IMG/VR virus record: IMGVR_UViG_3300032782_000001
Location: 370,404 to 434,403 of that record
Reading direction: 5' to 3' (one strand)
Source of the DNA: a virus
DNA: 64,000 bases
In this document: piece by piece, positions 21,366 to 60,626 of the stretch
Position numbering within the stretch: the first letter of the stretch is position 1
Layout: every line of letters starts with the position of its first letter
Notes under the pieces: model-generated
The model's database searches: none
Told to the model about the DNA's origin: nothing
Seen by the model: only the letters and a program-made list of their open reading frames with translations
Program-made: the position numbers and the translations under genes

Positions 21366-21638
21366 TCAAACGGTTGTGTAATTACCGGGAATATATATTC
21401 CACTCACATGATCTCGCATGGCTTCAGCATGCTTGCGCCCTTCTTCAAGAACTTCCATCATGTCGGCATGGAAAGCTGCTTCGTCGAAGGCAACGTTATG
21501 CTCTCGCCAATGACGATTGCACATAGATCTGAACATGTCTTTCTCCGCATCCCCTGATGGGTTGCAAATAGGACAATGGTCAGATGGAGGCTCGAATGGC
21601 AATTCGAGCTGCACGGGAAGCGTGTCGTATCGCTTCAT
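21366..21638 (-). CDS. small putative zinc-binding protein
   Basis: A 90-residue protein with CPICNP...CNRHW, a Cys/His set able to bind zinc, and a helical C-terminus. The start at 21638 overlaps the ribonucleotide reductase stop as ATGA, showing coupling; a longer frame would extend into that gene. A role linked to nucleotide reduction is only positional inference. Confidence 0.6.
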   Translation of the reverse strand: MKRYDTLPVQLELPFEPPSDHCPICNPSGDAEKDMFRSMCNRHWREHNVAFDEAAFHADMMEVLEEGRKHAEAMRDHVSGIYIPGNYTTV

Positions 21639-24439
21639 GAGCATCCAGATGAAGATCCGCATTGCATGCACAAATAACAAGTCCCGTTACGCCTTGTCAT
21701 GGCTCCGCAAGAACCACACGGCGGTGCATCCAGATCCATAAGAGAAGGCCTGGAAACAGATTCCGGAGAACTATCGGGAGGAGATGACGATGGAGAATCT
21801 GCTCCATTCATCAATTTATGATCCAATCCGGAGTTAGATCCACCGAAGTAACGCACGTCCAAAAGTTTGAACAAATAGTCATAGAGACTATCCGCGAACC
21901 TGATGTTAGGATTGCTAGTGAATCCGGCAGGTTCGAATTTCGTGTGCACAAAGCTGCGAATGAGCTTTTCGAGAGGAACTCCGTATTGGAGTGCAATACT
22001 CATGAGTTGGGTGAATCCATCGATGAGTCCACCCATTGTCGAACCGTTCTTGCCGAGTTTGAGAAACACTTCACCTAGAGTCCCATCAGGGTACTCACCC
22101 ATAATGATATAACCCTTGTGACCACTGATCTCAAATCGATGCCTGTGAGCAGTAATATCCTCCGGCATATGCTTGCGACGCGCGATAGACGCATCTGATT
22201 GAATAGCCTTGTTCTCATCCTTCTTGGTCGCGAGTGGTTGAGAAAGCTTGCATCCGTCGCGATACAAGGCAACGCATTTCAGTCCGAGCTTCCAGCTCTC
22301 AAGATAAATGTCAGCGATCTCCTGGGTTGTAACACTCCTCGGAAGATTAACTGTCTTACTTTGAGCGCAAGTGATGAGTGGCTGGATGGCAGCCATCATC
22401 TTAATGTGCGCCATCGGTGACAAATACCTCCCCGATGGTCCCGACGGCATTGCGCAGTCAAAGACTGGAAGATCCCTATCTTTCAGATGAGGAGCTCCTT
22501 CAATATGTCCCTTCTCTTCGAGATGAGCGCAGATGGATTCCACTTGATCGTCCGTATATCCGAGCCTGACTAATGCTTCGGGGACTACTTCGTTGACGAG
22601 CTTCATGAAACCGCCGCCCACGAGAGATTTGTAAGAGATAAGAGAGAATGCCGGTTCAATACCAGTCGTGTCCATCCCCATAAGGAAGGAAATGGTGCCG
22701 AGAGGGGCTTGCAGGGTGGCCTGTGAAACGTAGAAGCCGTATTTCGAACCGAGATCCATGACGTCGTTCCAAGCCTTGTGACTGTGCGCAACCACTTCGG
22801 CCCCCAGAGGGTCAGAACGAAGACTCGGCCGACGCAAAATATCGGCATTTGCCACATTATGCATTGCCATGACATGCATCATAGAATCTCGGTTCTTCTC
22901 GAATTCTTCAAACGGACCAACACGAGCAGCCAACTGAGCTGCCGTCTTGTAGACAACAGCAGTCATGAGACTAGCAAGACGAGCCGCTACAGCTCGGCCT
23001 TCGTCGGAATCGTACGAATATCCGAGCTTCATGAGAAGAGCTCCGAGGTTCCCATAATTCGTACCGATAGGTCGAAGCTTGAGAGAATTCTGACGGATCT
23101 TCTCAGTCGGATAATCGGCCTTATCCACAATCGCCATCTGAGCGGTGCTGAAGACTCGAACAGCTTGTTCGAACCTATTGTAGTTGAAAGCCAATATCCC
23201 CCGATCTTGATCGAAGAATTTCGTCAGATTGATTGCACATAGATTGCAGGCAGTATCATCCACATGCAAGAATTCTGAGCATGGGTTGGAGGAATTGATC
23301 CGACCAGATTCCGGAGTGGTGTGCCATCGGTTGATATGATCAGTGAATTGAACGCCCGGATCCCCACAAGTCCAAGCTGCTTCAGCAATTTCATTCCAGA
23401 GATCACGAGCCCGATAGGATTTGACAATGCGACCGGTTAGACGCTCGTGAGTGTCCCACATTCCATCCATTACGACGGCCCGCATGAACTCGTCAGGAAT
23501 TGATACGGAATGATTGGCATTCTGATATGACACCCATTTATAAGCCGAATTGGGATCATCGTAAGCAGCGCTATAGCCGCATTTCTCGATGAGATCGTGA
23601 GCCCTGCGCTCCTCGATGGCTTTGCAGCGGATGAAACCAGGTCGGCCATCTTGAGTTTCAAGAATATCCGGGTGGTTCATATCGAGAACCACCATCTTAG
23701 CTGCATTGCGGGTGGAACCACCAGACTTCATTGCCTTAGCACCCTTGTCGTGCTCTTCCATCCAGCCAAGCGGTCCACAAACGTAAGCCCCCGAAGAGAG
23801 CTTCTCATAAGAGGAACGGATCTTAGACAGGTTGGCTCCTGAACCGGAACCGCCAGCAAAAATGACCTTTTCTGATTGAGAAAAGGCATTGATCGATTCG
23901 AGGGTATCTTCAACCCCCGAGATGAAACATGCGGATGCCGCTTGCCGACGCCCAGGAACCCCTAAGTTAAACCAGACAGGAGAATTGAACGCACCGTATT
24001 GATGCAATAGGGAATAAAGCAGTTCTTCTTCAAAGACTACTGCGTCTTGATCTGAATTGAAGAATCCTTGGTCATCCGCCCAAAGACGAAGAGTAGAAGC
24101 AACACGACTGAAAAGTTGTTTGACGGAGTTTTCTTTTACCCCATCAATGTAGCGGAAATACTTGCTGGCAACCACGTCGATAGTGTTCTGGTTCCACCAA
24201 TCGGGTACTTCCACGTCTCGTTGTTGGAATTTGATATCTCCATTCGGTCCGCGAATTTCGGCGGTGGCAGTCTTCCATTGAATCTCTTCAAACGGATGAA
24301 TACCTTCGCTAGTGAATACCCTTTCCCACTTTCCGGAGGCCAAAGCATCAGCGTTTTTCGGATCTCGGGCGAGTGCAATGACGTTGCTCCTGTATGGAGT
24401 CTCAATCGCCAGGGTTCCGTTAGCGGCGACGCTTACCAT
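21635..24439 (-). CDS. nrdJ: class II (adenosylcobalamin-dependent) ribonucleotide reductase
   Basis: A 934-residue large single-chain reductase that makes deoxynucleotides without oxygen or a small subunit. Recognisable are NSPVWFNLGVPG, CFISGVEDTLESI, the glycine-rich GGSGSGANLSKIR, NPCSEFLHVDDTACNLCAIN (the NPCSE active-site region) and a C-terminal TSCPD-like region ending in a Cys-rich tail (CGSCGAM...CMQCGSSSGC). Needing coenzyme B12, it depends on host cobalamin. The start at 24439 has a strong AGGAGG six bases upstream, located inside the end of the delta-subunit gene. Confidence 0.92.
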   Translation of the reverse strand: MVSVAANGTLAIETPYRSNVIALARDPKNADALASGKWERVFTSEGIHPFEEIQWKTATAEIRGPNGDIKFQQRDVEVPDWWNQNTIDVVASKYFRYIDGVKENSVKQLFSRVASTLRLWADDQGFFNSDQDAVVFEEELLYSLLHQYGAFNSPVWFNLGVPGRRQAASACFISGVEDTLESINAFSQSEKVIFAGGSGSGANLSKIRSSYEKLSSGAYVCGPLGWMEEHDKGAKAMKSGGSTRNAAKMVVLDMNHPDILETQDGRPGFIRCKAIEERRAHDLIEKCGYSAAYDDPNSAYKWVSYQNANHSVSIPDEFMRAVVMDGMWDTHERLTGRIVKSYRARDLWNEIAEAAWTCGDPGVQFTDHINRWHTTPESGRINSSNPCSEFLHVDDTACNLCAINLTKFFDQDRGILAFNYNRFEQAVRVFSTAQMAIVDKADYPTEKIRQNSLKLRPIGTNYGNLGALLMKLGYSYDSDEGRAVAARLASLMTAVVYKTAAQLAARVGPFEEFEKNRDSMMHVMAMHNVANADILRRPSLRSDPLGAEVVAHSHKAWNDVMDLGSKYGFYVSQATLQAPLGTISFLMGMDTTGIEPAFSLISYKSLVGGGFMKLVNEVVPEALVRLGYTDDQVESICAHLEEKGHIEGAPHLKDRDLPVFDCAMPSGPSGRYLSPMAHIKMMAAIQPLITCAQSKTVNLPRSVTTQEIADIYLESWKLGLKCVALYRDGCKLSQPLATKKDENKAIQSDASIARRKHMPEDITAHRHRFEISGHKGYIIMGEYPDGTLGEVFLKLGKNGSTMGGLIDGFTQLMSIALQYGVPLEKLIRSFVHTKFEPAGFTSNPNIRFADSLYDYLFKLLDVRYFGGSNSGLDHKLMNGADSPSSSPPDSSPESVSRPSLMDLDAPPCGSCGAMTRRNGTCYLCMQCGSSSGCS

Positions 24440-25334
24440 TCTGTGCCTCCTCACTCAAACGAACGATTTCAGATTCCAACCCGTATCGCGCAAGCGTGTT
24501 CCCACGTTTGTGCATGATGTCCAAATCACACAAAGTGTTAAGGCTGGACATCAAAGACGCAGAAGCCCATAAACCGAGTCGCGGGAGCACCATTTTCTTA
24601 TATAGGAAAGGGTGGATGCCAAGACGCTCGGCGACGTCGGGAACCTTCCCGTCGACTAAAGTCTGCAATCTGATCTGTTGCACTACGTGACGCTGCATGT
24701 AGGCCAGAATCCATCCAGTTTCGTCCCCGTTCTCTTGGAGCTTGTCGTGGAATGCCAGAGCCCGGATGGTTTGACCTTCGCATATGGCGTCAATGATCTG
24801 CTTGGGGGTTAACTCGGCGGAGAAGCACATCACGAGACGTGCCTTCTCAGGCAGAACCGTGCCACCCTTAGGGGTTATTACCGAAAGTTTCCTGATCTCC
24901 GATGAGATCTTTCGCAGACCGTTTCCGCAATTCACAAAAAGCGCACCCGCTACCCGGCTTAGATCTATGTTGAGAGCCTCTCCTTCCTTCAAAATCCACT
25001 TGATGACATCATTATTATCATCGAATGTCTTAAGTTTTGGAAAATTGTGAACTCGGCGTGCACGCGAATCAGATAAAATCTTCTTTCCAGCAGAAACAGC
25101 AATGACAACATCATTACCAGTGGGTATGTAAGGAATTTCTGAGACATCCCATAAAATGAAGGAGCGCGTTCCTCCATCTACCGTGGTCATTTGTACCTCT
25201 TCGAGGTACTCGTTAAGTCCTTTCGGGAGAGTATACTCAGCGGTGTGAGATGTCAGAGAAGCATGAGCTTCTTCTCTGGCTGCGCGTTCTTTTAAAAACT
25301 CTTCCTCACCATTAATTAGGATCAACGACGCCAC
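24420..25334 (-). CDS. holA: DNA polymerase III delta subunit (HolA-like)
   Basis: A 304-residue clamp-loader delta subunit. It begins with LILINGEEEFLKERA as in HolA. It has no Walker A, as expected for delta, and its C-terminal domain has the family pattern AERLGIHPFLYKKMVLPRL followed by DLDIMHKRGN. It opens the sliding clamp in the loader. The delta' gene is directly upstream and the reductase gene overlaps its 3' end. Confidence 0.85.
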   Translation of the reverse strand: MASLILINGEEEFLKERAAREEAHASLTSHTAEYTLPKGLNEYLEEVQMTTVDGGTRSFILWDVSEIPYIPTGNDVVIAVSAGKKILSDSRARRVHNFPKLKTFDDNNDVIKWILKEGEALNIDLSRVAGALFVNCGNGLRKISSEIRKLSVITPKGGTVLPEKARLVMCFSAELTPKQIIDAICEGQTIRALAFHDKLQENGDETGWILAYMQRHVVQQIRLQTLVDGKVPDVAERLGIHPFLYKKMVLPRLGLWASASLMSSLNTLCDLDIMHKRGNTLARYGLESEIVRLSEEAQNGKRRR

Positions 25335-31587: not shown

Positions 31588-32382
31588 GTGACTGCAAAGA
31601 ATTCGAAAGCAAAAAGAACCGTTAGCGTAGCAGAGCGCGAGGAAGCGCTCAAGAAAGCCTTGGATGAGGCTACTCAACGCATGGCCACAGGCAAGAAGGA
31701 ACGGGAGTATTTTCGACCCCTCTTGGAAGAATTGGTTCGCAATAATGCAATTCCTGTGGAGCTATTGCAGTTTGTTCCGGTTCGAGCCTCGGAAGCTGGT
31801 AAAACAAGGTTTGACCAGCTTTATGACGCGGCCATGTTGTTGGCATTCCCGGGGTATAGGAAGGAAACTCTTCAAAGGCTTTTAGCTCCTGGTGAATCTG
31901 TAAAAACTGGCACGAAGATTTGGAGAGTGACATTTCCTGAGAAATTTGGTCTATCGCATGTGCTGATTCGAGCAGAATCTTTCCAAGAAGCTTTTGCTCT
32001 CGGCTGCGATTATGCTTGTCGAGTTTCATTACGAATGAACAAACGAATACCAGTCGATTTGACAGTCCGTGTCATGATTGTGACGGAAAGGGCTCTGCGC
32101 CGGAAACTCGATATGAGATGGGCGAATCGGGTACAAAGGCGTAAGCAACTTCAGCTCGAAGCTCGTATATATACTCCAAAAGAACTTGCTGGAGCCAGAA
32201 TGGCTGCCATCGGACATCCGAAAGATCCGAAGAGAAGCTTGGCTAGATATGTAGAAGCAAAAGATCTGCAGAGTATTTTGAAATCAAAAGGACTCACCAA
32301 GGTTTCGGCTGTTGAGGCAGAAATCCCGAAGAAAGAACTCGTCATTGATACCGGTCCAGGGATTCCAAAGATTCGTGGGTAA
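31588..32382 (+). CDS. hypothetical basic protein
   Basis: A 264-residue Lys/Arg-rich protein. An N-terminal helix (EREEALKKALDEATQRM) precedes a core with WRVTFPEKFGLSHVLIRAES. The C-terminal half is strongly basic (LRRKLDMRWANRVQRRKQL). Nucleic-acid binding is likely from charge, but no family was recognised. It starts at GTG and is the first gene of the plus-strand run leading into the PurZ-like gene. Confidence 0.6.
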   Translation: MTAKNSKAKRTVSVAEREEALKKALDEATQRMATGKKEREYFRPLLEELVRNNAIPVELLQFVPVRASEAGKTRFDQLYDAAMLLAFPGYRKETLQRLLAPGESVKTGTKIWRVTFPEKFGLSHVLIRAESFQEAFALGCDYACRVSLRMNKRIPVDLTVRVMIVTERALRRKLDMRWANRVQRRKQLQLEARIYTPKELAGARMAAIGHPKDPKRSLARYVEAKDLQSILKSKGLTKVSAVEAEIPKKELVIDTGPGIPKIRG

Positions 32383-32426: not shown

Positions 32427-33614
32427 ATGCAAGATGGGAAGCTCAATATTCTGCTGGATTGCTTCTGGGGTTCTAGCGGAAAGGGCAAAACGTCCGCCTT
32501 CTTGGCGGATAGATTCAACGTCACTCACGTCTCCAGCTCCAACTTCCCGAATGCTGGTCACACCGCTCTGTTTGAAGACGGAACGAAGTTCGTTGCAAAA
32601 GCCATCCCGACGGCTGCCATCCTCAAGAAAGTGAAAGGAATGGGGATGGAATGCTGGATTACTCCTGGTTCTGGATTCTCATGGGGCCAACTTTGTAAGG
32701 AATGGAAAGAAGCTGGATATCCCGAAATTCGAATCCATGAGCGTGCGAGCATCGTTACAGACGATCACGCTAAGCGGGAACGTGAAGGTGCGGATTCAAC
32801 CATGCATATTGCATCCACAATGCAAGGTTCGGCCGCAGCCATCGTAGATAAAATCCTTCGACGAGCTGACTGCAAACTCGCTTGGAATGATCATGAAGAA
32901 ATGAAGAGGCAGTTTAGTCATCTCTTCGAAAGCAAGACAGCACGATCCTCAGATTCAATTTCTGTGATCCGGGCGGACGAATTCCGCAAGTGCGTCCAGG
33001 AAACTGTGATGACAAGGGGCCACATGTGGCTCCACGAGGGATCGCAAGGTTATGCTCTCTCTATCGATCACGGATCGCACTATCCACAATGCACTTCACG
33101 TAATTGCACTGTGCAAGCGGCGCTCGATCACCTCGCAATGCCGCCACGATCTCTGGGAGATGTTTACCTCAATTTGAGGACGTTCCCCATTCGAGTTGGA
33201 AACGTTATGGGAGATGACGGGCAACAGAAGGGGTACTCCGGTGACTTCTATCCGGACTGTGAAGAAATGACTTGGGAACAGGTCGCTTCTGAATCTGGAA
33301 TGCCTGCCGAAGAAGCCAAAGCGCTTGCTGAAAGAGAACGTACGACTGTGACCAAGCGTATCCGTCGCGTTTGTACTTTTTCGTTCATCGGACTCCGAGA
33401 CGCAGTCGTGACCAATGGAGCCACGAAGCTCGTTCTCAATTTCGTCCAATATCTAGATTGGAATGATCATGGATTGCGCGGCGGAAAAGAAGCCTTCGAG
33501 AAGCTCTCCAAGAAGAGCAGGAAATTCATCGATAAAATCGAAGCCACCACCAATGTTCCTGTAGTCCTCATCGGAACCGGTGCGGCACACGAAGACATGA
33601 TCAGTCTGTTATAA
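32427..33614 (+). CDS. purZ: PurZ-like adenylosuccinate synthetase homologue (2-aminoadenine pathway)
   Basis: A 395-residue PurA-family GTP-dependent ligase. The P-loop reads FWGSSGKGK (residues 13-21), so Ser16 stands where PurA has its catalytic Asp (WGDEGKGK). NAGHT follows at 42-46 and HEGSQGYALSIDHG further on. Phage PurZ enzymes characterised in aminoadenine-genome phages carry this Asp-to-Ser change and use dGMP with aspartate to make the dZMP precursor. I therefore infer a role in replacing adenine by 2-aminoadenine in phage DNA. Start ATG with GGAGGCGGAAGAG upstream. The MazG-like gene is 4.7 kb downstream. Confidence 0.85.
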   Translation: MQDGKLNILLDCFWGSSGKGKTSAFLADRFNVTHVSSSNFPNAGHTALFEDGTKFVAKAIPTAAILKKVKGMGMECWITPGSGFSWGQLCKEWKEAGYPEIRIHERASIVTDDHAKREREGADSTMHIASTMQGSAAAIVDKILRRADCKLAWNDHEEMKRQFSHLFESKTARSSDSISVIRADEFRKCVQETVMTRGHMWLHEGSQGYALSIDHGSHYPQCTSRNCTVQAALDHLAMPPRSLGDVYLNLRTFPIRVGNVMGDDGQQKGYSGDFYPDCEEMTWEQVASESGMPAEEAKALAERERTTVTKRIRRVCTFSFIGLRDAVVTNGATKLVLNFVQYLDWNDHGLRGGKEAFEKLSKKSRKFIDKIEATTNVPVVLIGTGAAHEDMISLL

Positions 33615-33620
33615 TCTTTT

Positions 33621-33866
33621 GTGGTTGAAAATACGTCAGCGCTTGCGCACGTTCTGTGCGGAACTTGCGTCGGAGAATTCGAACGCCACTGCGGTTATTT
33701 CGAATCTTCCAAGAGAAGAAGTTCAGTCCAGTCTCTCCAAAAATTCGAGACCGGGACCAGAGCATTCTGTTGTAATTGCGGACAGGATGACTGGGTAATG
33801 GCAGTTTGCCGTTTAAAAACCAATAACGACATTTGTGATGGAAATCACATTGAAGTGGATTTGTGA
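33621..33866 (+). CDS. small Cys-rich protein
   Basis: An 81-residue protein from GTG. CGTCVGEFERHC and FCCNCGQDDW could form a zinc site. It follows the PurZ-like gene by six bases, so it is probably co-transcribed. Function unknown. Confidence 0.5.
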   Translation: MVENTSALAHVLCGTCVGEFERHCGYFESSKRRSSVQSLQKFETGTRAFCCNCGQDDWVMAVCRLKTNNDICDGNHIEVDL

Positions 33867-33868
33867 TT

Positions 33869-34120
33869 ATGGAAGATAAACCTCGAATTTTCGGTGCAGG
33901 AGTTTTCACCGCAGCTGTAAGTATGAGAGGGATGACTCTTTATGTTGGAACACAAGAAATCCAGTTCGTTAAATCAATGAATTTGGAAGGAGACGCTGAG
34001 TCCGGCGTCATGAAACTGGAGATTTCATTCCCTCTGAGTCATGAACCGAAAGTAATGGAAGAAATTGAGCTGAATATGCGAGCAGCTCGGAAGCTTCCTT
34101 GGGTTGTAGTTAAACAATGA
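33869..34120 (+). CDS. hypothetical small protein
   Basis: An 83-residue protein with a beta-rich body (GVFTAAVSMRGMTLYVGTQE) and a helical C-terminus. It overlaps or abuts the previous stop. No family recognised; it converges on the gene at 34121. Confidence 0.5.
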   Translation: MEDKPRIFGAGVFTAAVSMRGMTLYVGTQEIQFVKSMNLEGDAESGVMKLEISFPLSHEPKVMEEIELNMRAARKLPWVVVKQ

Positions 34121-34696
34121 TTAATTTGCCGATCGAGGCTCTTCTTTTCGCTTACGCTTCAAGTGTATACCGATTTGATCTGGATTGGAAATCATATATT
34201 CATAACATGATTTGAAATATCCCTGGACAGGATGTGCTGCATCCTTGCGCATCAAGGCTTCCAAGACCAACATTCCGGATTTAGTGTCAGACCAAATCCA
34301 GTCTTCGTCAATAGGTACGCCCGGAGATTGTTGGCTCCATACGTTCCCATAAGGAAACATGAGTAAGATGTATTCCATTTTGCTCAAATGAGGCCGGGGA
34401 AGCGGAACATAGCTTTCCTGACGTTTGATTGATAAGAATATCCCAGGAGGCAACACCAGACCGTTTGGAGTATTGGAAACCCACCTTTTGATGCTCATCC
34501 ATTTGACTTCAGGAGTCTTAATGTGCATCCGCTTCCGGCATGTCAGTGAACAATTGTAAAGCGCTGATGGAGACAGGCCACATAGCCAAGGGCGAAAATC
34601 TGCGGGCACGCCCGTAAATGAGTGCAAGGATTTAATAGAAGGAATCTGGATAGTCGAAATCCGCCGTTGTACAATCGTTTTCACGTTCGAATCCAT
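34121..34696 (-). CDS. hypothetical protein
   Basis: A 191-residue Trp/Cys-containing protein (FRPWLCGLSPSALYNCSLTC) with a basic end (LKRKRKEEPRSAN). The ATG has GGGAG eight bases upstream. It is divergent from the ThyX-like gene, the two starts being only 15 bases apart, so their ribosome sites share the GGGAGCCTC palindromic stretch. Function unknown. Confidence 0.55.
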   Translation of the reverse strand: MDSNVKTIVQRRISTIQIPSIKSLHSFTGVPADFRPWLCGLSPSALYNCSLTCRKRMHIKTPEVKWMSIKRWVSNTPNGLVLPPGIFLSIKRQESYVPLPRPHLSKMEYILLMFPYGNVWSQQSPGVPIDEDWIWSDTKSGMLVLEALMRKDAAHPVQGYFKSCYEYMISNPDQIGIHLKRKRKEEPRSAN

Positions 34697-34711
34697 AGAT
34701 GAGGCTCCCTA

Positions 34712-36049
34712 ATGTCCGAACAACAGACCGAGATCTTCTGCCTTACGGACCATACGGGTGCTCCATTGAGCCCCGCGAAACAAGCGACTGTACTTGCGAA
34801 ATATTCACGGTCTCCGGAGTCTGCCAAAGAACTCTTGGCCAAACTTTCGGCCGAAGAAGCGGATAAATTCCAGGAAAAGTGGGTTGTGAGTTATGGCCAT
34901 AAGAGTGTGGCAGAACTCGCTACCGCGCCTGTATGCCTCGAGCGAATTTCTATCGTGGCATCCAAATTCTTCGAATCTTGGCAAAGGCCTGGATACTCGG
35001 AAAAGAGTACAAGGTACCAGGCTTTCTCTCGAGATTCCTTCGTCACGCCGCCTGGTGGCCCTGAGACCATGGCAAAATTCGCCGCCAGGTTCTACGATGC
35101 ATACGATCGTCTCAATGAGAGAATGACGGCACGATGCGCCAAACTCATGAATCTGCCAGAGTCCGACAGGACTGTGAAGGCTAGAGCGTTTGATAACCTC
35201 AGGTACCTGTTGCCTGCTGGAACTGGAACGAACGTCGCTATTGTCGCCAACATGTGCGACTTGCGAGAAATGATCGTCAGGGCTCGGGGCCACAACAATT
35301 CTGAATTCCGTCTCATCGGGGACAAAATCCACGATGCAGTAGGAGAAGTTGCCCCCACTTTAGTAAAACATACTGAACCGGATGCTTTCGAACCAGTCGT
35401 AAAAGGACTCGGGAACATTAGCCCGAAATTCAGTTTTGAAGCTCCGGATTGGTACGTGGACCTCCACAAGCCATTCTTGCTGCCCGATCCTGCGTTGACT
35501 CAAAAGTCATTTGAATCGACAATCGCAGATCGGCACGGAATGAGTTGGTCAGCGTTCTGCAAGCACATGGACTCTCGCCCAGAACACCGACACGTACCCA
35601 AAGTCTTCCGATCCATTCGGATCGCTTTTGACATTATGATGGACTACGGCGCATACCGAGATCTACAAAGGCATCGGCGTTGTGAGCAATATGCAGAGCC
35701 ATTGTCTATTCACTACGGGTATTTAGTGCCAGATGACATTCTCGGATCCGATCTTGAGAATGAATATCGAGAAGCTATGGAGGCTATTTGGGCATATGAC
35801 GACGATTCTGTCGTTCACGACGCAGACTTTATGCAGTATATGATTCCCCTTGGCTATCTGCATAGGTCCGTATTTGATATGGACCTGGAGCAACTCTACT
35901 ATATTTCAGAACTCCGAACCAAGCCGCAAGGCCATATTTCGTATAGGCGAGTAGCTTACGAAATGTATCGGCTCGGTAAAGAGAGGTTCCCGCAAGCCAT
36001 GCAGTGGTGTCGAGCTATTTTACCGGCTTCAATCGGGAAGCATACTTGA
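34712..36049 (+). CDS. ThyX-like flavin-dependent thymidylate synthase, two-domain form
   Basis: A 445-residue protein with two ThyX-like halves. The first half has SYGHKSVAELATAPVCLERI, SWQRPGYSEKSTRY and a FDNLRYLLPAG region. The second half carries the signature-type QRHRRCEQYAEPLSIHYGY and ISELRTKPQGHISYRRVAYE. Single-domain ThyX is roughly half this size. It would methylate dUMP to dTMP with folate and FAD, supplying thymidine for phage DNA. Start ATG with GAGG upstream. Confidence 0.82.
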   Translation: MSEQQTEIFCLTDHTGAPLSPAKQATVLAKYSRSPESAKELLAKLSAEEADKFQEKWVVSYGHKSVAELATAPVCLERISIVASKFFESWQRPGYSEKSTRYQAFSRDSFVTPPGGPETMAKFAARFYDAYDRLNERMTARCAKLMNLPESDRTVKARAFDNLRYLLPAGTGTNVAIVANMCDLREMIVRARGHNNSEFRLIGDKIHDAVGEVAPTLVKHTEPDAFEPVVKGLGNISPKFSFEAPDWYVDLHKPFLLPDPALTQKSFESTIADRHGMSWSAFCKHMDSRPEHRHVPKVFRSIRIAFDIMMDYGAYRDLQRHRRCEQYAEPLSIHYGYLVPDDILGSDLENEYREAMEAIWAYDDDSVVHDADFMQYMIPLGYLHRSVFDMDLEQLYYISELRTKPQGHISYRRVAYEMYRLGKERFPQAMQWCRAILPASIGKHT

Positions 36050-36072
36050 GTCTTGAGGCCGTATCGTTTGGT

Positions 36073-36366
36073 ATGAAAGAGTTCCAAGCTCAACTTGCTA
36101 ATACTGGCAAGGATATGGAAGAAGTCGTACAATTGATTATCGAGCTTTACGATCGATATGATCAGGTAAGATTCCCGTTCCAATTCAAGAGTAGAGAACC
36201 CCAAGCAGAGTTGGAACAAGTTGGCGGATACAGGACGCCACCTCGGAGGGTACCTCTACCTAGACCCACTTTTATGGAACGTGCTCGCAAAGAAATAGTC
36301 ATTACTGCTAATAGAATCACAGTTTTTATTTTGAATATTATGACACTTTGGATGTTTCAGCGGTGA
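36073..36366 (+). CDS. small tail-anchored membrane protein
   Basis: A 97-residue protein. A soluble helical N-terminus (MKEFQAQLANTGKDMEEVVQ), a Pro-rich linker (YRTPPRRVPLPRP) and a final hydrophobic segment (ITVFILNIMTLWMF) suggest insertion by its C-terminus. It follows the ThyX-like gene. Function unknown. Confidence 0.55.
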   Translation: MKEFQAQLANTGKDMEEVVQLIIELYDRYDQVRFPFQFKSREPQAELEQVGGYRTPPRRVPLPRPTFMERARKEIVITANRITVFILNIMTLWMFQR

Positions 36367-36698
36367 GATTTGGGATAAACCATGTCTTGATGGAAAGTCG
36401 TGGTTTCCCGTTCGTGCAGAATTGGCTGATGAAAAATCTTCGTGACTTTCCGATAAAGAGACCCTGAATCGGGATCGATAACGGGGACTTCCGCGATAGT
36501 GATGCAAGGTCCATCTTTTTCGGCCCTTTCGGCCGATTCGACGGACAGTTTGATCTTATCGACAGGAACCCGTCCGTAACCACCGATTACGGAACACAAA
36601 ACTTTTTTGCCGCTACGCAGCGTAAGCGGACTTGCCCCTCGCTCCGGGCAGTTTACGGCTACGCGACATTTAGTACATTCGAGTTGTAGGACGTTCAT
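36357..36698 (-). CDS. small protein with N-terminal zinc knuckle
   Basis: A 113-residue protein. LECTKCRVAVNCPERG forms a Cys cluster at the N-terminus, and the rest is beta-rich. It converges on the membrane-protein gene by 10 bases. Function unknown. Confidence 0.55.
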   Translation of the reverse strand: MNVLQLECTKCRVAVNCPERGASPLTLRSGKKVLCSVIGGYGRVPVDKIKLSVESAERAEKDGPCITIAEVPVIDPDSGSLYRKVTKIFHQPILHERETTTFHQDMVYPKSHR

Positions 36699-36740
36699 TT
36701 ACTAGACGTTACCGCGCTGAAACGTTTTTGAACGGGTTCT

Positions 36741-37625
36741 GTGAACATGAGCATCAGGCAATTCGTACCCCCGAAGTCTCTTAGTTCAATGAGGGAAATC
36801 GGGAGGTCCATGAGTGATAAGGGATTCTTTGAAATTGACCTCGTGGAGGCCAATATTACATGGACGAATGCGTTCACACTGCAAAAATTGGGATTGACTT
36901 CTGAACAGGTCAGAAGCATGACAATGTTTGATATCGTCCCTGTGGATCTCCATGATCCGATTCGGGACCATCTAGAAGATCACGCTTCAGGAAAACCAAA
37001 AAAATTCGCTATTTGGCCAGTTAAAACTTCCACTGGGAAAATTTCGTGGTGGTACATCTTTGACTCCAAAGTGGAATTTCCAATAAGCTGGTCATGTGCT
37101 GAATTCGTCCAGGAAACTGACGTGGATGGACCAGCTTATACTTTCATGCGCATCACTATGATGAACGCAAATAGTTATGGAACACTCCATAATCGCGTTC
37201 AAGAGTTGGATTCTTGGATCCATGATCAAGTTTCGCGTCTAGATGAAAAAGACGCTGATCACGACAAAGCTCTCTCGGAACTAAGTGAGAGAATGAAACA
37301 TGTTGTGAATGCTGCCACTCGTGCAGCTTCGACATCTCTCGAAGCTGCGTCAGCTGTTAAGGACTTAAAAGAGTCTCTGAAAGAGCAACTAGAAAAACAT
37401 GAAGAAGAAATCCTTAAATTAATTAGCACGGACGTTCATCACGACAGAAGGATGGAAGCGTTCGAGAAACACGTTAAAACTACTACAGACGTTGCAATCA
37501 AGTCTATTACAACTCAAGCGGATAAAGCCGGAAAAGGACTTTCTCGGAAAGTCACGATTCCCGTATCCACAATTGCAGCGATTGCCACTATTATTCAGTG
37601 GCTGATTCAGCATTTCCTGAAATAG
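36741..37625 (+). CDS. PAS-domain protein with coiled coil and C-terminal membrane anchor
   Basis: A 294-residue protein. Residues about 25-135 look like a PAS fold (FFEIDLVEANITWTNAFTLQ, MFDIVPVDLHDPI, then WWYIFDSKVEF). Next is a long helical coiled coil (150-260). The end is hydrophobic (STIAAIATIIQWLIQHFL), placing the sensor on the membrane. It has no kinase or cyclase domain. A stand-alone receiver protein is encoded at 51.5 kb. Start GTG, or ATG two codons later. Confidence 0.65.
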   Translation: MNMSIRQFVPPKSLSSMREIGRSMSDKGFFEIDLVEANITWTNAFTLQKLGLTSEQVRSMTMFDIVPVDLHDPIRDHLEDHASGKPKKFAIWPVKTSTGKISWWYIFDSKVEFPISWSCAEFVQETDVDGPAYTFMRITMMNANSYGTLHNRVQELDSWIHDQVSRLDEKDADHDKALSELSERMKHVVNAATRAASTSLEAASAVKDLKESLKEQLEKHEEEILKLISTDVHHDRRMEAFEKHVKTTTDVAIKSITTQADKAGKGLSRKVTIPVSTIAAIATIIQWLIQHFLK

Positions 37626-37629
37626 TTCA

Positions 37630-37652
37630 ATATCTTGCGTATCGCAAGATAT
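37630..37652. promoter_or_regulatory. perfect hairpin/palindrome overlapping the DUF488 start codon
   Basis: Ten-bp arms (ATATCTTGCG and CGCAAGATAT) with a 3-base loop end on the first bases of the ATG at 37651. No separate Shine-Dalgarno is visible. It could occlude translation as an RNA hairpin or bind a protein. Confidence 0.5.
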
Positions 37653-38277
37653 GATCTACACTATCGGTCACAGCGTCCTTCCTAAAGAAGAATTCCTCCG
37701 ACTCATCCGAGGAAAAGTGGATACTGTCATCGATGTTCGGTCTCATCCGAACTCCAAATGGCCACACTTTCGGAAGGAATCGTTGGAGAAATGGCTGCCT
37801 GAAGCAGGCATTGGATATGAATGGTGGCCTGAACTCGGTGGTTGGGACGCCAGGCACCTGCCTCTGGTTGAAACGTTTCCCGATGTGGACCTTGCTGCCT
37901 ATGCCAAGGGCAAATTCCCGAAGCAACGTATTGCAAAAAACGCCGAGCCGCCAGCAGAGCAGCTTGCATTACTAAAGCCGCAATGGACTAATATCGGCCT
38001 ACGTGATTACGCTTCTTTCACCAGCTTGGATGAATTTCTCGAAGGCGCAGACAGATTAATGGCGCGAGGAGAATCCGGTTCCGTTGGAATCATGTGTTGT
38101 GAGGTTCTGCCCTGGAAATGTCACAGGTCAATGATTTCGGACTATCTGGCATTTCGACAAGTGGACTCTGTTCACATGCAACCGAAGCCCAAGGCACATT
38201 CCCAAATGCTTGGGAATAGATTGGAACGCTATTCAGTCTCCATTTTGGAGGCTTGGAAAGCTTGGAAAGGCATTTAG
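37651..38277 (+). CDS. DUF488 family protein
   Basis: A 208-residue protein with the family's opening IYTIGHSVLPKEEFLRLI, then DTVIDVRSHPNSKWPHF and the late CCEVLPWKCHRSMISDYLA. The family is widespread and poorly characterised; the conserved Cys/His/Arg set suggests a catalytic or nucleotide-binding pocket. The start codon sits in a hairpin. Confidence 0.8.
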   Translation: MIYTIGHSVLPKEEFLRLIRGKVDTVIDVRSHPNSKWPHFRKESLEKWLPEAGIGYEWWPELGGWDARHLPLVETFPDVDLAAYAKGKFPKQRIAKNAEPPAEQLALLKPQWTNIGLRDYASFTSLDEFLEGADRLMARGESGSVGIMCCEVLPWKCHRSMISDYLAFRQVDSVHMQPKPKAHSQMLGNRLERYSVSILEAWKAWKGI

Positions 38278-38300
38278 TGTAACGTCGGAGCGGAGGCTCC

Positions 38301-38912
38301 ATGGACGTTTATCTCGTTAGTTCTCGAAGGCTCGATTGTGCACACCAGAATGTCTACGAGACGAAAGTCGTCTGTGGGAATTTGGAATCAGCCCGTCGGG
38401 CTGCTAAGAGTCTGTGTAGCGATCTCGACGGGTTATTCAACGAAACAGTTAAGAACGTCGAGTGGGAATATGACGTTGGAGGTGATCATCCGGTCAGAGT
38501 AACCAAGACGATGCTTAACGGTCATTGTGATCTCGGTATTGAAGAACTTTGCGCAATTTCTTCTCAGATCGCTTTGGAGCATGGGTGGAAGAATGATTTC
38601 CCCACTCAGTCACTTTTAACTGTAACTGAAATTGCAGAAGCTGTTGAGGAATTCCGTGATCATCGGGGACTGAACGAGATCTGGTACAGCCACACCGTCA
38701 AGTCCAATAACGGAAAGACGAAGACTATTTCGGAAGTCTCGGCGGATACACCAGGAGCAAAACCCGAAGGTATCCCTGTAGAACTTGGAGATGCCATTAT
38801 TCGGATTTGTGATTGGTGTGGACAAAACGCCATTGATCTCCTGACTGCAATTCGCATCAAGGTCGAGTATAATCGGACCCGACCTTTCAGGCACGGGGGT
38901 AAGGCCATTTAG
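38301..38912 (+). CDS. MazG-like nucleotide pyrophosphohydrolase (MazZ candidate)
   Basis: A 203-residue protein. The last 115 residues have the MazG pattern: EIAEAVEEFRDH (Glu110, 113, 116, 117) and, about 45 residues on, ELGDAIIRICDW (Glu161, Asp164), which bind Mg. The first 75 residues form an extra unrecognised domain. In aminoadenine phages a MazG-type enzyme (MazZ) turns dGTP into dGMP for PurZ; that role is inferred here from the PurZ-like gene in the same run. GGAGG precedes the ATG. Confidence 0.75.
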   Translation: MDVYLVSSRRLDCAHQNVYETKVVCGNLESARRAAKSLCSDLDGLFNETVKNVEWEYDVGGDHPVRVTKTMLNGHCDLGIEELCAISSQIALEHGWKNDFPTQSLLTVTEIAEAVEEFRDHRGLNEIWYSHTVKSNNGKTKTISEVSADTPGAKPEGIPVELGDAIIRICDWCGQNAIDLLTAIRIKVEYNRTRPFRHGGKAI

Positions 38913-47340: not shown

Positions 47341-47583
47341 TCAGGACTCCATCACTTCCCAGATAATATTCATCGGACATTCTTCAGGCTCATCCCCCAC
47401 CGGAACAGTGGAGTCACACCATTCACAATGACCCAAACCGTTAGCTTGACGTAAAACACGATGGCCTTTCCCAAAAGCAATCTCATCCAATTTCTTGAAA
47501 ATAAGTTCGTCTTCAGCCGATTTAATTTGTTCTCGCGCAGATATAACTGCCGCAGAATGTATAGGCAAAGGTTGACGTGCCAT
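47341..47583 (-). CDS. small Cys-containing protein with EVMES tail
   Basis: An 80-residue protein. CEWCDSTVPVGDEPEEC suggests a metal site, and it ends NIIWEVMES. Divergent from the dNMP kinase gene. Function unknown. Confidence 0.5.
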   Translation of the reverse strand: MARQPLPIHSAAVISAREQIKSAEDELIFKKLDEIAFGKGHRVLRQANGLGHCEWCDSTVPVGDEPEECPMNIIWEVMES

Positions 47584-47603
47584 GCGAGACTGTACGGTCG
47601 GTC

Positions 47604-48554
47604 GTGCGTCACCACATCTTCTGTTTCAGTGGGTACTCGGGCGTCGGCAAAGATGAATGCGCCGGGCATCTCGTTCGAACGAGACAGGCAATTCACACTG
47701 GGCTTGCAGACCCTGCCAAACGCCATATGGCAGATCTCTACGGATTCACCAAAGAACAGCTCTTCGGACCGAGTCATTTTCGCAATGCAGGCGATCCGAG
47801 ATATCCGAAGAATGTTATTCGAAATCTCGGATTCCAATACTTTGATGGTCAAGTAGAGTTGCGAGATGTTGTAGGAGAACTTCGTGATGGCAAACGCTAT
47901 ATCATCGTAGAAACAAGAAATCTCCCTGGAACAGAACCAGTTCCAGGGAAGCCAGGTTGGCCGGCTGTTCCGCGGCAACCTCTCCAACTCGGGAAAGCTC
48001 GATACTTCATCGAAAACGATCATCCGAATTTCTTCTTGTCGCCTCGTGAGGCGCTGCAACTCTACTGCAATCTCATGAACGATCTCTATCTCGATTCATG
48101 GATTCGCAAGGGTATTGAAGTTCATCAACAACTTGCCGAAATCCATCAGCAAGATGGAAAGGAAGTCTTCATGCGTCATAGTTACGATCGCATGATGGGC
48201 GTAATCGTGAATGACGTGCGGGAAGGTACCAATTGGAAAACGTCAGATGGGAACTTCTTTACATGCTTTTCTGATTTCCGCCACCGACACGAAATCTCCC
48301 TCGTCAGAGCGTTCAAAGCTGAGTATACTCCAGTCGTGATTCGCGTGAAGCACCCGAAGATTACAATGCCCCCATACGATCATCGTTCAGAGACGGAACA
48401 AGCTAGTATTCCGGATTCTGCATTCGACTTCGTCATCGATAATGACGGGAGTCTCCAAGAGCTCTACACAAAGGTCGAGAAGATCGTAGAAACGGTCATT
48501 GCATCTGACGGTTGGAGGCTTCGAGGGCGGAGCTTATATGAGGAGGCCTCGTGA
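47604..48554 (+). CDS. deoxynucleoside monophosphate kinase-like protein
   Basis: About 316 residues. An N-terminal P-loop CFSGYSGVGKDECAGHL matches T4 gp1-like dNMP kinases, and a C-terminal VRVKHP plus FDFVIDNDGSLQELY matches the lid and end of the family. It is longer than most, with extra central sequence. It would phosphorylate dNMPs, possibly including dZMP. An earlier GTG at 47577 would overlap the divergent gene start. Confidence 0.75.
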   Translation: MRHHIFCFSGYSGVGKDECAGHLVRTRQAIHTGLADPAKRHMADLYGFTKEQLFGPSHFRNAGDPRYPKNVIRNLGFQYFDGQVELRDVVGELRDGKRYIIVETRNLPGTEPVPGKPGWPAVPRQPLQLGKARYFIENDHPNFFLSPREALQLYCNLMNDLYLDSWIRKGIEVHQQLAEIHQQDGKEVFMRHSYDRMMGVIVNDVREGTNWKTSDGNFFTCFSDFRHRHEISLVRAFKAEYTPVVIRVKHPKITMPPYDHRSETEQASIPDSAFDFVIDNDGSLQELYTKVEKIVETVIASDGWRLRGRSLYEEAS

Positions 48555-58152: not shown

Positions 58153-58872
58153 ATGGAAACCTTCCGAGGTCGCCCATTGACCGAGACTGAAATTCAATGG
58201 CGAACCGAAGGCCGATGCATTGGATGCGGAGCTCCCGCCCGGAAAGTCAAAATGAAAGACGGGACCATTCGCCCTGATATGGAATGCAAAGATTGCTACG
58301 GATCCAGGAATTCATACCCTTCCGGAGGCAATTCATTCCGTGAGTTCGGTGCTTCTCGAGCATCTGTTGGACATGAATATCGATCCCGGCTTGGTTACTC
58401 TTCCCGAGCCGGCGGAGCCCCACGACAACCCGGAGAAGAAACTGCCACCCAGAAAACCGAAGTTTGGTTGTCTACCCCGGAGCCCAAACTCCTTCCCTCA
58501 CCAGAACCGCCCTTCCAAATCACCCCCTCCAGGGTAAAAATCGTGCATATGCGGTGGTCTGGAATGTCTATCGCCGACATCGCACATGAACTTCGTCTAT
58601 GGGTGCCAAACGTCCGACATGTTCTTCAGAAACTTCGAGCCTCTAAAAGTACCATCCCAGACTGGGCCCAAGACTGGTTAAGGCAGGAAGTTTATAGCCG
58701 AGATCAACCCGACCATCTGACCCGCAAACATGAAGAAACCCTTCAACACACCATCTCCCAACTTCTCAGCCGCGGCATCCCAAAAGTAGTCATCCTGGAA
58801 ACCCTCGGACTCCATTCGGAACGCGACGCGTCCCTCATGGAACCCTGCGGTTGCTTCTCCGACCAAACATAA
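58153..58872 (+). CDS. zinc-ribbon and helix-turn-helix protein
   Basis: A 239-residue protein. The N-terminus has CIGCGAPARK...CKDCYG (two CxxC). A long Ser/Pro linker follows, then a helix-turn-helix-like region (RWSGMSIADIAHELRLWVPN) and a last helical domain. Likely DNA-binding. It is divergent from the gene at 58052; a 32-codon frame at 58092-58190 in the gap is too weak to call. Confidence 0.55.
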   Translation: METFRGRPLTETEIQWRTEGRCIGCGAPARKVKMKDGTIRPDMECKDCYGSRNSYPSGGNSFREFGASRASVGHEYRSRLGYSSRAGGAPRQPGEETATQKTEVWLSTPEPKLLPSPEPPFQITPSRVKIVHMRWSGMSIADIAHELRLWVPNVRHVLQKLRASKSTIPDWAQDWLRQEVYSRDQPDHLTRKHEETLQHTISQLLSRGIPKVVILETLGLHSERDASLMEPCGCFSDQT

Positions 58873-59094
58873 GATCGTTCAATTACCCCGAACGACGTTC
58901 CGAACCAGGCACTACCCCCTAGAAAAGGGATCGTCCACGCAAAAATCGAACGAATACTTTGAAGCGCTCAGGGACCCAATTTTCCCTGTGCATGAACTTC
59001 CCCATCCAAAAAGATTTACCTCGTCACTCCCTCCCCCTCTCCCCTATCCCATACCCTCCCACCCCCATACTACTCCCCCTATCCCTATTTATCC
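58873..59094. other. intergenic boundary with polypyrimidine tract
   Basis: No gene is supported. About 59020-59098 is almost purely C/T on the plus strand (polypurine on the minus strand) with repeated CCCTAT-like units. Base composition rises sharply in GC to the right of it. Confidence 0.6.
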
Positions 59095-59439
59095 CTACTG
59101 GGTGGCCATGGGGGCGAGGGCCCGCATCTCCGGGATGTCGTAGTAGCAGACCGGCCCGTAGCAGTTCGGGGGCGTCGGCGCGGGGCGCCAGCTCCGGGCC
59201 GCGGCGGGCCTTTCCGCGCGCTTGGCGGTCGTCGGGCGGGTCTCGGGCCGCGGGAAGATCGGAGACGCTCCCGGGGCCACGTAGACGGCCGGAGCGACCG
59301 GTTCGGGCTTCGGCGCTTCCTGGACGGGGGTCGGATCGGGCTGGCGCGTCCCGTAGATGCGCAGTTCGCCTTGGAAGAGCGAGGGGCCGAAGGCGTAGGC
59401 GGCGAGGCCGAGGACCAGCAGGACGAGGAACGTCTTCAT
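59095..59439 (-). CDS. small exported or membrane-anchored Pro-rich protein
   Basis: A 114-residue protein with an N-terminal signal or anchor (MKTFLVLLVLGLAAYAFG), a Pro/Ala-rich body (PVQEAPKPEPVAPAVYV) and a C-terminal Cys pair (CYGPVCYYD). It shares the QEAPKP-rich plan with the gene at 62622. Driven by its own copy of the GC-region promoter. Confidence 0.65.
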   Translation of the reverse strand: MKTFLVLLVLGLAAYAFGPSLFQGELRIYGTRQPDPTPVQEAPKPEPVAPAVYVAPGASPIFPRPETRPTTAKRAERPAAARSWRPAPTPPNCYGPVCYYDIPEMRALAPMATQ

Positions 59440-59445
59440 ATCTCC

Positions 59446-59472
59446 GGATACGGCGGACGGGGCCGGACTTGT
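59446..59472 (-). promoter_or_regulatory. GC-region promoter, gene at 59439
   Basis: ACAAGTCC, then 14 bases, then TATCC on the minus strand; a short GGAG follows before the ATG. Confidence 0.65.
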
Positions 59473-59483
59473 CGCCCGGCCCC
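59459..59483 (-). terminator. GC-rich hairpin overlapping the -35
   Basis: Arms GGGGCCGG and CCGGCCCC around a 9-base loop that contains the -35-like ACAAGT. It lies just downstream of the gene ending at 59492. No U-tract. Confidence 0.45.
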
Positions 59484-59491
59484 GCGGCCCG

Positions 59492-59752
59492 TCACTCGGG
59501 CAGAACGGCCAGGGCGGCGCGGAAGAGGGCCGGGCGGCCGGTCATGAAGACCCAGGGCGCCCCGTCTTCCTCGTCGCCTTGACGGAACAGGGCGACGCAG
59601 GAGTTGCCCCGGGCGACGAGGCCAACCGCGTTCCCCTTGAGGTCAGGGCCGGCGTGCCCCTGGTTGACGTTGATCTTGGGGTCACCCGAGACCTTCACTT
59701 GGTACTCGCGACCCGAGAACACGAACGAACCCTCGAAGGACCATTTGCTCAT
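59492..59752 (-). CDS. small hypothetical protein
   Basis: An 86-residue beta-rich protein (FEGSFVFSGREYQVKVSGD). Unlike its neighbours it has no GGAGG before the ATG, although a weaker promoter match is present upstream. Function unknown. Confidence 0.6.
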   Translation of the reverse strand: MSKWSFEGSFVFSGREYQVKVSGDPKINVNQGHAGPDLKGNAVGLVARGNSCVALFRQGDEEDGAPWVFMTGRPALFRAALAVLPE

Positions 59753-59757
59753 GGGTT

Positions 59758-59783
59758 GCAATACGGCGAGGGCCGCCAGGTTT
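59758..59783 (-). promoter_or_regulatory. GC-region promoter, weaker copy, gene at 59752
   Basis: AAACCT, then 14 bases, then TATTG on the minus strand. The -35 is less conserved and the cassette lacks the Shine-Dalgarno. Confidence 0.4.
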
Positions 59784-59804
59784 CCCCAGCGGCCCTCGGT
59801 CCGT

Positions 59805-60032
59805 CTAGCAGCGCTCCATGCGGCGCGCCCACCGCTCGTAGTCCTCGACCTGCTCCTCCGTCATCTTGGGGACGAGAGGAGTCCGGGAGCCAGACTCGTC
59901 CTCGTACTCGAGCGTGTCGCCGTGCGAGGCCATGTTCGGGCTGACGCATTGCCCGATGGGTGCGTGCTTGACGAGCCGGGTCAGGGGCTTGGCCGTGCGG
60001 TCTGCGTCGAGACGTGCCTTCTTCGTGTCCAT
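59805..60032 (-). CDS. small hypothetical protein, paralogue of gene at 62036
   Basis: A 75-residue protein. KARLDADRTAKPLTRLVKHA and LEYEDE closely match the protein at 62036-62224, so the two are duplicates; this copy has an extra C-terminal helix (EEQVEDYERWARRM). The ATG follows the standard GGAGGTGAC cassette. Confidence 0.7.
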   Translation of the reverse strand: MDTKKARLDADRTAKPLTRLVKHAPIGQCVSPNMASHGDTLEYEDESGSRTPLVPKMTEEQVEDYERWARRMERC

Positions 60033-60051
60033 CGTCGTCACCTCCGACCTG

Positions 60052-60078
60052 GAATACGACAAGAGGGACCGGACTTGC
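60052..60078 (-). promoter_or_regulatory. GC-region promoter, gene at 60032
   Basis: GCAAGTCC, then 14 bases, then TATTC on the minus strand, followed by GGAGGTGACG and ATG. Confidence 0.75.
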
Positions 60079-60088
60079 GCCCGGTCCC
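60065..60088 (-). terminator. GC-rich hairpin overlapping the -35
   Basis: Arms GGGACCGG and CCGGTCCC with an 8-base loop carrying GCAAGT of the promoter -35. It follows the stop of the upstream gene (60104) and could end its transcript. Confidence 0.45.
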
Positions 60089-60103
60089 CTGGGTCCTGGT
60101 GGG

Positions 60104-60322
60104 CTATTCGCCCTTGGCCGCTTTCCTTCCTGCTTCGGTGACCCTGATGTTGCCTTCCGCGTCCTCTTCGAGCATGCCGCGGCGCAGCAATGCTTCGTGC
60201 GTCACGATGTTCTGGTGGTGCGTCGGGCGTCGCATGCCGATCTTGGTCTTTTGACCCTTGTTGCTGTCTTCGACCCCGACGCACCATTTGAGATCTTCGA
60301 GCATCCGCTGGCTGAGCTTCAT
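60104..60322 (-). CDS. small hypothetical protein
   Basis: A 72-residue helical protein (LSQRMLEDLKWCVGV) whose C-terminus, ALLRRGMLEEDAEGNIRVTE, resembles a small winged-helix segment. Function unknown. Standard promoter and GGAGG cassette. Confidence 0.65.
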   Translation of the reverse strand: MKLSQRMLEDLKWCVGVEDSNKGQKTKIGMRRPTHHQNIVTHEALLRRGMLEEDAEGNIRVTEAGRKAAKGE

Positions 60323-60340
60323 CCCGTCACCTCCGGGGCA

Positions 60341-60367
60341 GAATACGCCCCGGAGCGCGGAATTTGC
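60341..60367 (-). promoter_or_regulatory. GC-region promoter, gene at 60322
   Basis: GCAAATTC, then 14 bases, then TATTC on the minus strand, followed by GGAGGTGACG and ATG. Confidence 0.7.
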
Positions 60368-60371
60368 GGCT

Positions 60372-60608
60372 TTAGGGCACTTCCATCCGGACGGTGATTT
60401 GGTCGTCCTTCCCTTCCCATCCGTCCGGGTGCGCGTCGTAGAAGCCATCCCGGACTTCGAGGTTGCCCACGAGGACGCCCGACTCGTCCTGCTCGGTGTG
60501 GAATTCCCCGACCGCCGTATGCCACGCCACGATGTTCTTAGCGCGTCGGATCGCTTCGTCCGACGTCATGGTGTCCGGCTTCTCGATCCCGATGAAGACC
60601 ATTTCCAT
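60372..60608 (-). CDS. small hypothetical protein
   Basis: A 78-residue acidic protein (AIRRAKNIVAWHTAVGEFHT) with no recognised family. Standard cassette upstream. Confidence 0.65.
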   Translation of the reverse strand: MEMVFIGIEKPDTMTSDEAIRRAKNIVAWHTAVGEFHTEQDESGVLVGNLEVRDGFYDAHPDGWEGKDDQITVRMEVP

Positions 60609-60626
60609 CTCGTCACCTCCAGCCAG

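What the first reader, a model, noticed from the sequence alone, without database searches (positions are those of the whole stretch)
32427..38912. PurZ-like enzyme plus MazG-like hydrolase: probable 2-aminoadenine (Z) genome
Sequence: the PurA-family P-loop reads WGSSGKGK, with Ser in place of the catalytic Asp, while NAGHT and the HEGSQG...IDHG region are kept. Established: this Asp-to-Ser change marks PurZ of aminoadenine phages, where MazG-type MazZ supplies dGMP. A MazG-like gene is in the same plus-strand run (38301-38912) and a dNMP kinase is at 47.6 kb. Inference: adenine is replaced by Z in this phage. DatZ and a matching polymerase were not found here. The replication genes seen are of Pol III type, so the Z pathway may be paired with a Pol III replisome rather than DpoZ.
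Basis: partly seen in the sequence, partly recalled or inferred. Interest (0 to 1): 0.92.

Follow-up and report, generated by a model that had tools for sequence, protein, structure and literature searches.

The report
Huge phage predicted to replace adenine
A 436-kb bacterial virus, one of a lineage of giant phages known only from metagenomes, carries a genuine PurZ enzyme and other nucleotide enzymes suggesting it replaces adenine in its DNA with 2-aminoadenine, a chemistry so far tied to phages of about 38-81 kb.

Summary
The window is part of a 436,316-base phage record whose ends share a 127-bp repeat, so it probably closes to a circle. The 395-aa protein has all three PurZ-diagnostic substrate residues (S16, T306, Q341). 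It sits in a huge-phage clade beside the phiVC8/S-2L PurZ, away from PurA and PurZ0, and its predicted fold best matches PurZ crystal structures.

The MazG-like gene at 38301-38912 is absent around purZ in all 19 related loci. There is no Pol III alpha gene: the polymerase is family A, but without DpoZ signatures.

The likelier partners lie ~230 kb away: an HD phosphohydrolase (PHROG 'dATP triphosphohydrolase') overlapping a second MazG-like gene, next to the polymerase. Serine-PurZ and this HD gene are in 6/6 lineage records of at least 300 kb and 0/14 polymerase-related huge phages; three of the six also encode PurB, the next pathway enzyme. The HD gene does not group with DatZ and lacks its purine-discriminating residue, so the dATP-removal step is inferred.

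A Z genome is likely (about 0.75) but unproven without nucleoside analysis. Verdict: new variant of a known kind.

The parts
32427..33614 (+). purZ, 395 aa, predicted dGMP:aspartate ligase (2-amino-2'-deoxyadenylosuccinate synthetase); ribosome-binding site GGAGG just upstream
   Evidence: Families, tree, active-site residues S16/T306/Q341, predicted fold closest to 6FKO/6TNH/7ODX, upstream sequence
34712..36049 (+). ThyX-like thymidylate synthase, 445 aa, a conserved neighbour of purZ
   Evidence: PF02511 E 2.4e-32; orthologue near purZ in most related loci
47577..48554 (+). deoxynucleoside monophosphate kinase-like, 325 aa; candidate dZMP kinase (inference)
   Evidence: PF21448 E 5.7e-8, phrog_139 E 4.3e-22; orthologue near purZ in most related loci and immediately beside it in G042
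31588..32382 (+). unknown 264-aa protein directly upstream of purZ, conserved
   Evidence: Orthologue upstream of purZ in most related loci; no Pfam match
34121..34696 (-). unknown 191-aa protein on the opposite strand between purZ and thyX, conserved
   Evidence: Orthologue in most related loci; no Pfam match
38301..38912 (+).
   Evidence: phrog_3301 E 1.3e-26; absent around purZ in all 19 related loci; its best relatives are in actinophages
21635..24454 (-). vitamin B12-dependent ribonucleotide reductase, deoxynucleotide supply
   Evidence: NF005122 1099.8 bits, cut-off 859

Best explanation
A lineage of huge phages (five apparently closed records of 363-436 kb) makes dZTP and builds DNA with 2-aminoadenine instead of adenine. 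Proposed pathway: the MazG-like protein at genome 169454-169957 converts dGTP to dGMP; PurZ (window 32427-33614) joins aspartate to dGMP to give dSMP; adenylosuccinate lyase (phage PurB in three of six members, the host's in this one) gives dZMP; the phage dNMP kinase or host kinases give dZTP; the HD phosphohydrolase at genome 168805-169461 removes dATP; and a family A polymerase without DpoZ signatures copies with whatever purine remains, as proposed for S-2L PrimPol. Shown here by sequence: PurZ identity, the HD-MazG gene pair, PurB in three relatives, the polymerase family, and lineage-wide co-occurrence. Inferred: every substrate, the direction of the pathway, and the base in the virion.
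For: PurZ residues equivalent to S-2L S23, T273 and Q308 are S16, T306 and Q341; typical PurA has D, G, D. S at the first position and T at 273 in all 37 huge-phage PurZ sequences tabulated. Tree: window PurZ lies in a huge-phage clade that, with Flavobacterium phage MaF61 (99/90), is sister to the phiVC8/S-2L/SH-Ab clade (95/83) and split from PurA and PurZ0 by a 99/96 branch. AlphaFold model: best PDB hits by E-value are phiVC8 and S-2L PurZ. The HD and MazG-like genes overlap and lie next to the polymerase. Among records of at least 300 kb with a related polymerase, the window lineage has serine PurZ and HD in 6/6; other lineages have 0/14 of either, and 4 of those 14 carry canonical Asp PurA. 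PurB above its equivalog cut-off in G002, G036, G042.
Against: No nucleoside analysis. The HD protein groups apart from DatZ (split 90/89) and has Ser at the I22 position that excludes the 2-amino group in S-2L DatZ, so dATP specificity is not supported. The MazG-like partner lacks the guanine-contacting Asp of S-2L MazZ. The polymerase lacks DpoZ signatures. PurZ misses the NCBIfam cut-off. The six lineage members are related, so co-occurrence is not six independent events. Some records may be incomplete.
Confidence: 0.75

Rival explanations
1. The phage has PurZ and makes dZTP, but A is only partly replaced, because the polymerase is not Z-selective and the HD enzyme is not a strict dATPase.
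For: Canonical KRxNFxxIYG motif and no clustering with DpoZ-1 or DpoZ-2; HD residue I22 to Ser/Thr.
Against: S-2L achieves full replacement with a non-selective polymerase plus DatZ (PMC8065100); the HD gene is retained throughout the lineage.
Confidence: 0.15
2. The protein is a divergent PurA that makes adenylosuccinate from IMP, with PurB boosting ordinary adenine supply.
For: Same superfamily; PurB in three relatives; related huge phages carry true PurA.
Against: Catalytic Asp replaced by Ser in every member; PurZ-specific T273 and Q308 equivalents present; the sister huge phages' PurA keeps GDEGKG or GDCGKG; tree and fold place it with PurZ.
Confidence: 0.05
3. PurZ makes Z, but the HD-MazG pair serves another purpose (dNMP salvage or degradation of other nucleotides) and is linked to PurZ only by shared ancestry of one lineage. 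This is compatible with a Z genome and is not exclusive of the best explanation.
For: The HD protein is about as close to YfbR as to DatZ by profile; structure hits are YfbR, OxsA, lin2634 and HDDC2; PurZ-bearing subclade B huge phages lack it.
Against: HD plus MazG is the same functional pair that accompanies purZ in phiVC8/S-2L-type phages; the HD gene is absent in 14 polymerase-related huge phages without serine PurZ.
Confidence: 0.25

Closest known systems
PurZ of phiVC8, S-2L, SH-Ab 15497 (2-aminoadenylosuccinate synthetase)
   Same: Ser for catalytic Asp, Thr at the T273 position, base-site Gln as in S-2L, insertion after the RV motif, overall fold
   Different: About 30% identity to named phages; a separate sister clade found only in uncultured phages; not adjacent to mazZ or datZ; three members carry inteins
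Z-cluster purZ-mazZ-datZ of S-2L and ZP6
   Same: A MazG-like and an HD phosphohydrolase gene together
   Different: The pair sits about 230 kb from purZ beside the polymerase; HD not in the DatZ clade; base-contact residues differ
DpoZ-1/DpoZ-2 polymerases
   Same: Family A polymerase
   Different: Motif B keeps F and Y (KRCNFAFIYG), no helix-O insertion, groups with polymerases of other huge phages
PurZ0 system of Wayne/Ghobes (DutZ, DmtZ, DUF5664)
   Same: Purine replacement logic; Gordonia phage Archimedes also has an annotated PurB
   Different: Window PurZ has Gln, not Asp, at the 308 position and falls outside the PurZ0 clade

Membership tests
PurZ (PF00709 subfamily) | Asp13 of PurA replaced by Ser | tested here: met
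   S16; all huge-phage relatives
PurZ (PF00709 subfamily) | PurZ-specific substrate contacts T273 and Q308 (S-2L numbering) | tested here: met
   T306 and Q341
PurZ (PF00709 subfamily) | Grouping with characterised PurZ, apart from PurA | tested here: met
   99/96 branch
PurZ (PF00709 subfamily) | NCBIfam NF038379 curated score cut-off (300 bits); a naming threshold of one model, not a biological feature | tested here: not met
   198 bits, still the best of all models; the family is named here on residues, tree and fold
PurZ (PF00709 subfamily) | dGMP as substrate | not testable with these tools
   needs an enzyme assay
PurZ0 | Placement in the PurZ0 clade; Asp at the 308 position | tested here: not met
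DatZ | HD metal ligands and phosphate contacts (R19, H34, H66, D67, E70, K81, K116, D119) | tested here: met
DatZ | Bulky hydrophobic residue at I22 that excludes 2-amino purines | tested here: not met
   Ser or Thr in all 10 lineage members
DatZ | Grouping with DatZ of Z phages | tested here: not met
   other side of a 90/89 split; weak, long branches
MazZ | MazG metal motif ExxE...ExxD | tested here: met
   E92/E95/E120/D123 of the 169454-169957 protein, conserved in the 3 lineage members aligned
MazZ | Guanine-specific contacts (N20, D60 of S-2L MazZ) | tested here: inconclusive
   D60 aligns with V130; alignment is remote
DpoZ | DpoZ motif B changes (L455/F459) and helix-O insertion, or clustering with DpoZ | tested here: not met
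Z-genome phage | 2-aminoadenine in virion DNA | not testable with these tools
   needs nucleoside LC-MS

The most novel reading that the evidence does not exclude
A whole lineage of 363-436 kb phages has 2-aminoadenine genomes made by an independently assembled pathway: PurZ of a new clade, a non-DatZ HD phosphohydrolase plus MazG pair, sometimes phage PurB, and an ordinary-looking family A polymerase; a second huge-phage PurZ subclade without the HD gene uses yet another solution, with a short divergent PolA-like protein.
Probability: 0.55. Interest if true: 0.82.

Novelty: new variant of a known kind. Interest (0 to 1): 0.72.

Why it matters
The named Z phages found here are about 38-81 kb (to 168 kb if Flavobacterium phage MaF61, whose PurA-like protein has the Ser change, is counted). 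Full adenine replacement in genomes of up to 436 kb would be a roughly five- to tenfold larger Z genome, would show that the chemistry scales to complex phages with many genes of their own for replication and metabolism, and would add a second, convergent way of excluding dATP. It also makes directly testable whether a polymerase without DpoZ signatures can copy Z DNA when the nucleotide pool is controlled.

Tried and rejected
1) The window MazG-like gene as MazZ: rejected, not conserved near purZ. 2) Pol III replisome: rejected, no Pol III alpha, and no family B polymerase in the six lineage records. 3) DpoZ: rejected on motif and tree. 4) dUTPase-like ORF g81955 as DutZ: weak phmmer hit (0.015) and no dUTPase Pfam match; dropped. 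A dCTP deaminase lies beside the polymerase. 5) Scan of 84,980 GTDB genomes with the huge-phage PurZ alignment: none. 6) Single-sequence scan of IMG/VR found nothing; the alignment scan kept 80 loci (its cap) out of 493 candidate relatives. 7) AlphaFold of the HD protein: HD fold, but the base-contact loop is below pLDDT 50 and no structure hit passes 0.001; not used for specificity. 8) PurB in this genome: none found.

Full report
Setting. The window is bases 370404-434403 of a 436,316-base IMG/VR virus record, G000. I read the rest of the record as overlapping stretches. Its two ends share an exact 127-base direct repeat, so it most likely closes to a circle of 436,189 bases. It is a tailed phage: terminase and tail-fibre families are present. 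Records G002, G013, G034 and G036 also have terminal repeats of 46, 55, 127 and 29 bases.

Observation. The 395-aa ORF at 32427-33614 is real and reads WGSSGKGK, NAGHT and HEGSQG. Its best families are PHROG '2-aminooxy adenylosuccinate synthetase' (5e-54) and NCBIfam PurZ (1.9e-58; 198 bits, below the curated cut-off of 300), ahead of every PurA model. Best named-phage relatives are about 30-36% identical.

Is it PurZ? In S-2L PurZ, S23, T273 and Q308 are PurZ-specific residues that interact with the substrates (PMC8342488). The window protein has S16, T306 and Q341 there, where typical PurA has D, G and D. Ser and Thr at the first two positions are invariant in the 37 huge-phage sequences tabulated. 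In a 97-row tree the window protein falls in a clade of huge-phage proteins on IMG/VR contigs up to 427 kb. With Flavobacterium phage MaF61 (99/90) that clade is sister to the phiVC8/S-2L/SH-Ab PurZ clade (95/83), and a 99/96 branch separates them all from PurA and PurZ0. An AlphaFold model (pLDDT 84) is closest by E-value to phiVC8 and S-2L PurZ structures. This is established computationally; substrate use is inference.

The 38301-38912 ORF is MazG-like, but no orthologue appears around purZ in 19 related loci, whereas the ThyX, dNMP kinase and two unknown neighbours (31588, 34121) are conserved. Its family is in only G000, G003 and G022 at full strength, and its best relatives are in actinophages.

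The likelier partners. Outside the window, at genome 168805-169461 and 169454-169957, an HD phosphohydrolase (PF12917 6.5e-18; PHROG 'dATP triphosphohydrolase' 1.7e-18) overlaps a second MazG-like gene. The pair lies about 10 kb from the polymerase, with the same order in G002 and G013 and in further lineage records. Of 13 lineage records that reach the region, 12 have the HD gene over its Pfam cut-off and one (G035) has a sub-threshold match; two pairs of these records look like near-duplicates.

Control for chance. I took records of at least 300 kb whose family A polymerase is related. In the window lineage, serine PurZ and the HD gene occur in 6 of 6 (G000, G002, G013, G034, G036, G042). 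In other lineages 0 of 14 have either, and four of those 14 carry PurA with the canonical Asp. Fisher's test gives 2.6e-5, but the six are one lineage, so this is not a count of independent events. In S-2L and ZP6, purZ, mazZ and datZ are neighbours, and HD and MazG genes follow purZ in most of the small-phage loci of the phiVC8-like clade; the huge-phage pair is the same functional combination at a different place.

PurB. Three of the six lineage members (G002, G036, G042) encode adenylosuccinate lyase above the TIGR00928 equivalog cut-off. This is the step after PurZ, normally left to the host. None was found in the window's own genome.

What does not fit. The HD protein keeps all metal and phosphate ligands, but its base contacts differ: W20 to Phe/Tyr and I22 to Ser/Thr in all ten lineage members. 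It falls on the other side of a 90/89 split from DatZ, in a tree with long branches. I22 is what excludes the 2-amino group in S-2L DatZ (PMC8065100). So it is not shown to be DatZ, and it may not spare dZTP. The MazG partner lacks the Asp that reads guanine N2 in S-2L MazZ, though the alignment is remote.

Polymerase. There is no Pol III alpha in the record and no family B polymerase in the six lineage records. The family A polymerase (965 aa, genome 179284-182181) has motif B KRCNFAFIYG, without the Leu/Phe changes and helix-O insertion of phiVC8-type DpoZ or the Phe of Wayne-type DpoZ, and groups with polymerases of other huge phages. The best inference is that A is excluded by pool control, as proposed for S-2L, whose PrimPol does not discriminate (PMC8065100).

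Novelty. A 2026 survey of NCBI viruses found 151 PurZ-group sequences in at least seven phage groups, and the sections I read do not mention huge phages (PMC12884076). A 2026 jumbo-phage review contains none of the searched terms for 2-aminoadenine or PurZ (PMC13282480). Searches of the open-access library for PurZ, 2-aminoadenine or diaminopurine with jumbo or huge phages showed no paper reporting this among the titles listed; subscription papers were not searched. Scans of named phages and GTDB genomes gave no close relative.

Verdict. PurZ is confirmed at high confidence; a 2-aminoadenine genome in this huge-phage lineage is likely (about 0.75) and new in scale and gene set; the dATP-removal and dGMP-supply steps are inferred; DpoZ is excluded on the tested signatures.

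Noticed in passing
L033:8651-11113, L073:8576-10999, L099:6872-10510: PurZ genes of three huge phages carry inteins with LAGLIDADG endonuclease domains, inserted at or near the NAGHT active-site motif; L099 appears to have a second intein near residue 221.
   Followed up: partly
L139-L149 (records G014, G017-G021, G023-G025, G027, G033): A second huge-phage PurZ subclade has no HD/DatZ-like gene and encodes a 380-450 aa PolA-like protein with a strongly altered motif B and no evident exonuclease domain.
   Followed up: partly
L113:595-1635 (Sinorhizobium medicae plasmid): A plasmid-borne 346-aa PurA-like protein has Ser at the catalytic Asp position and Thr at the T273 position, and groups with PurZ0.
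   Followed up: no
window 58500-64000: GC jumps from about 0.48 to 0.61-0.69; the ORFs tested there have no Pfam match; one tRNA-Lys is predicted.
   Followed up: partly
L027:7983-9326 (Flavobacterium phage MaF61, 168 kb): Annotated adenylosuccinate synthetase has Ser at the catalytic position (GSSGKGK) and sits beside huge-phage PurZ in the tree; it lies among RNR and terminase genes.
   Followed up: partly
L173, L174, L175 (lineage DnaB, and polymerase in L173): DnaB ORFs of 871-1171 aa and a polymerase ORF of 1342 aa are much longer than their relatives and may also carry inteins.
   Followed up: no
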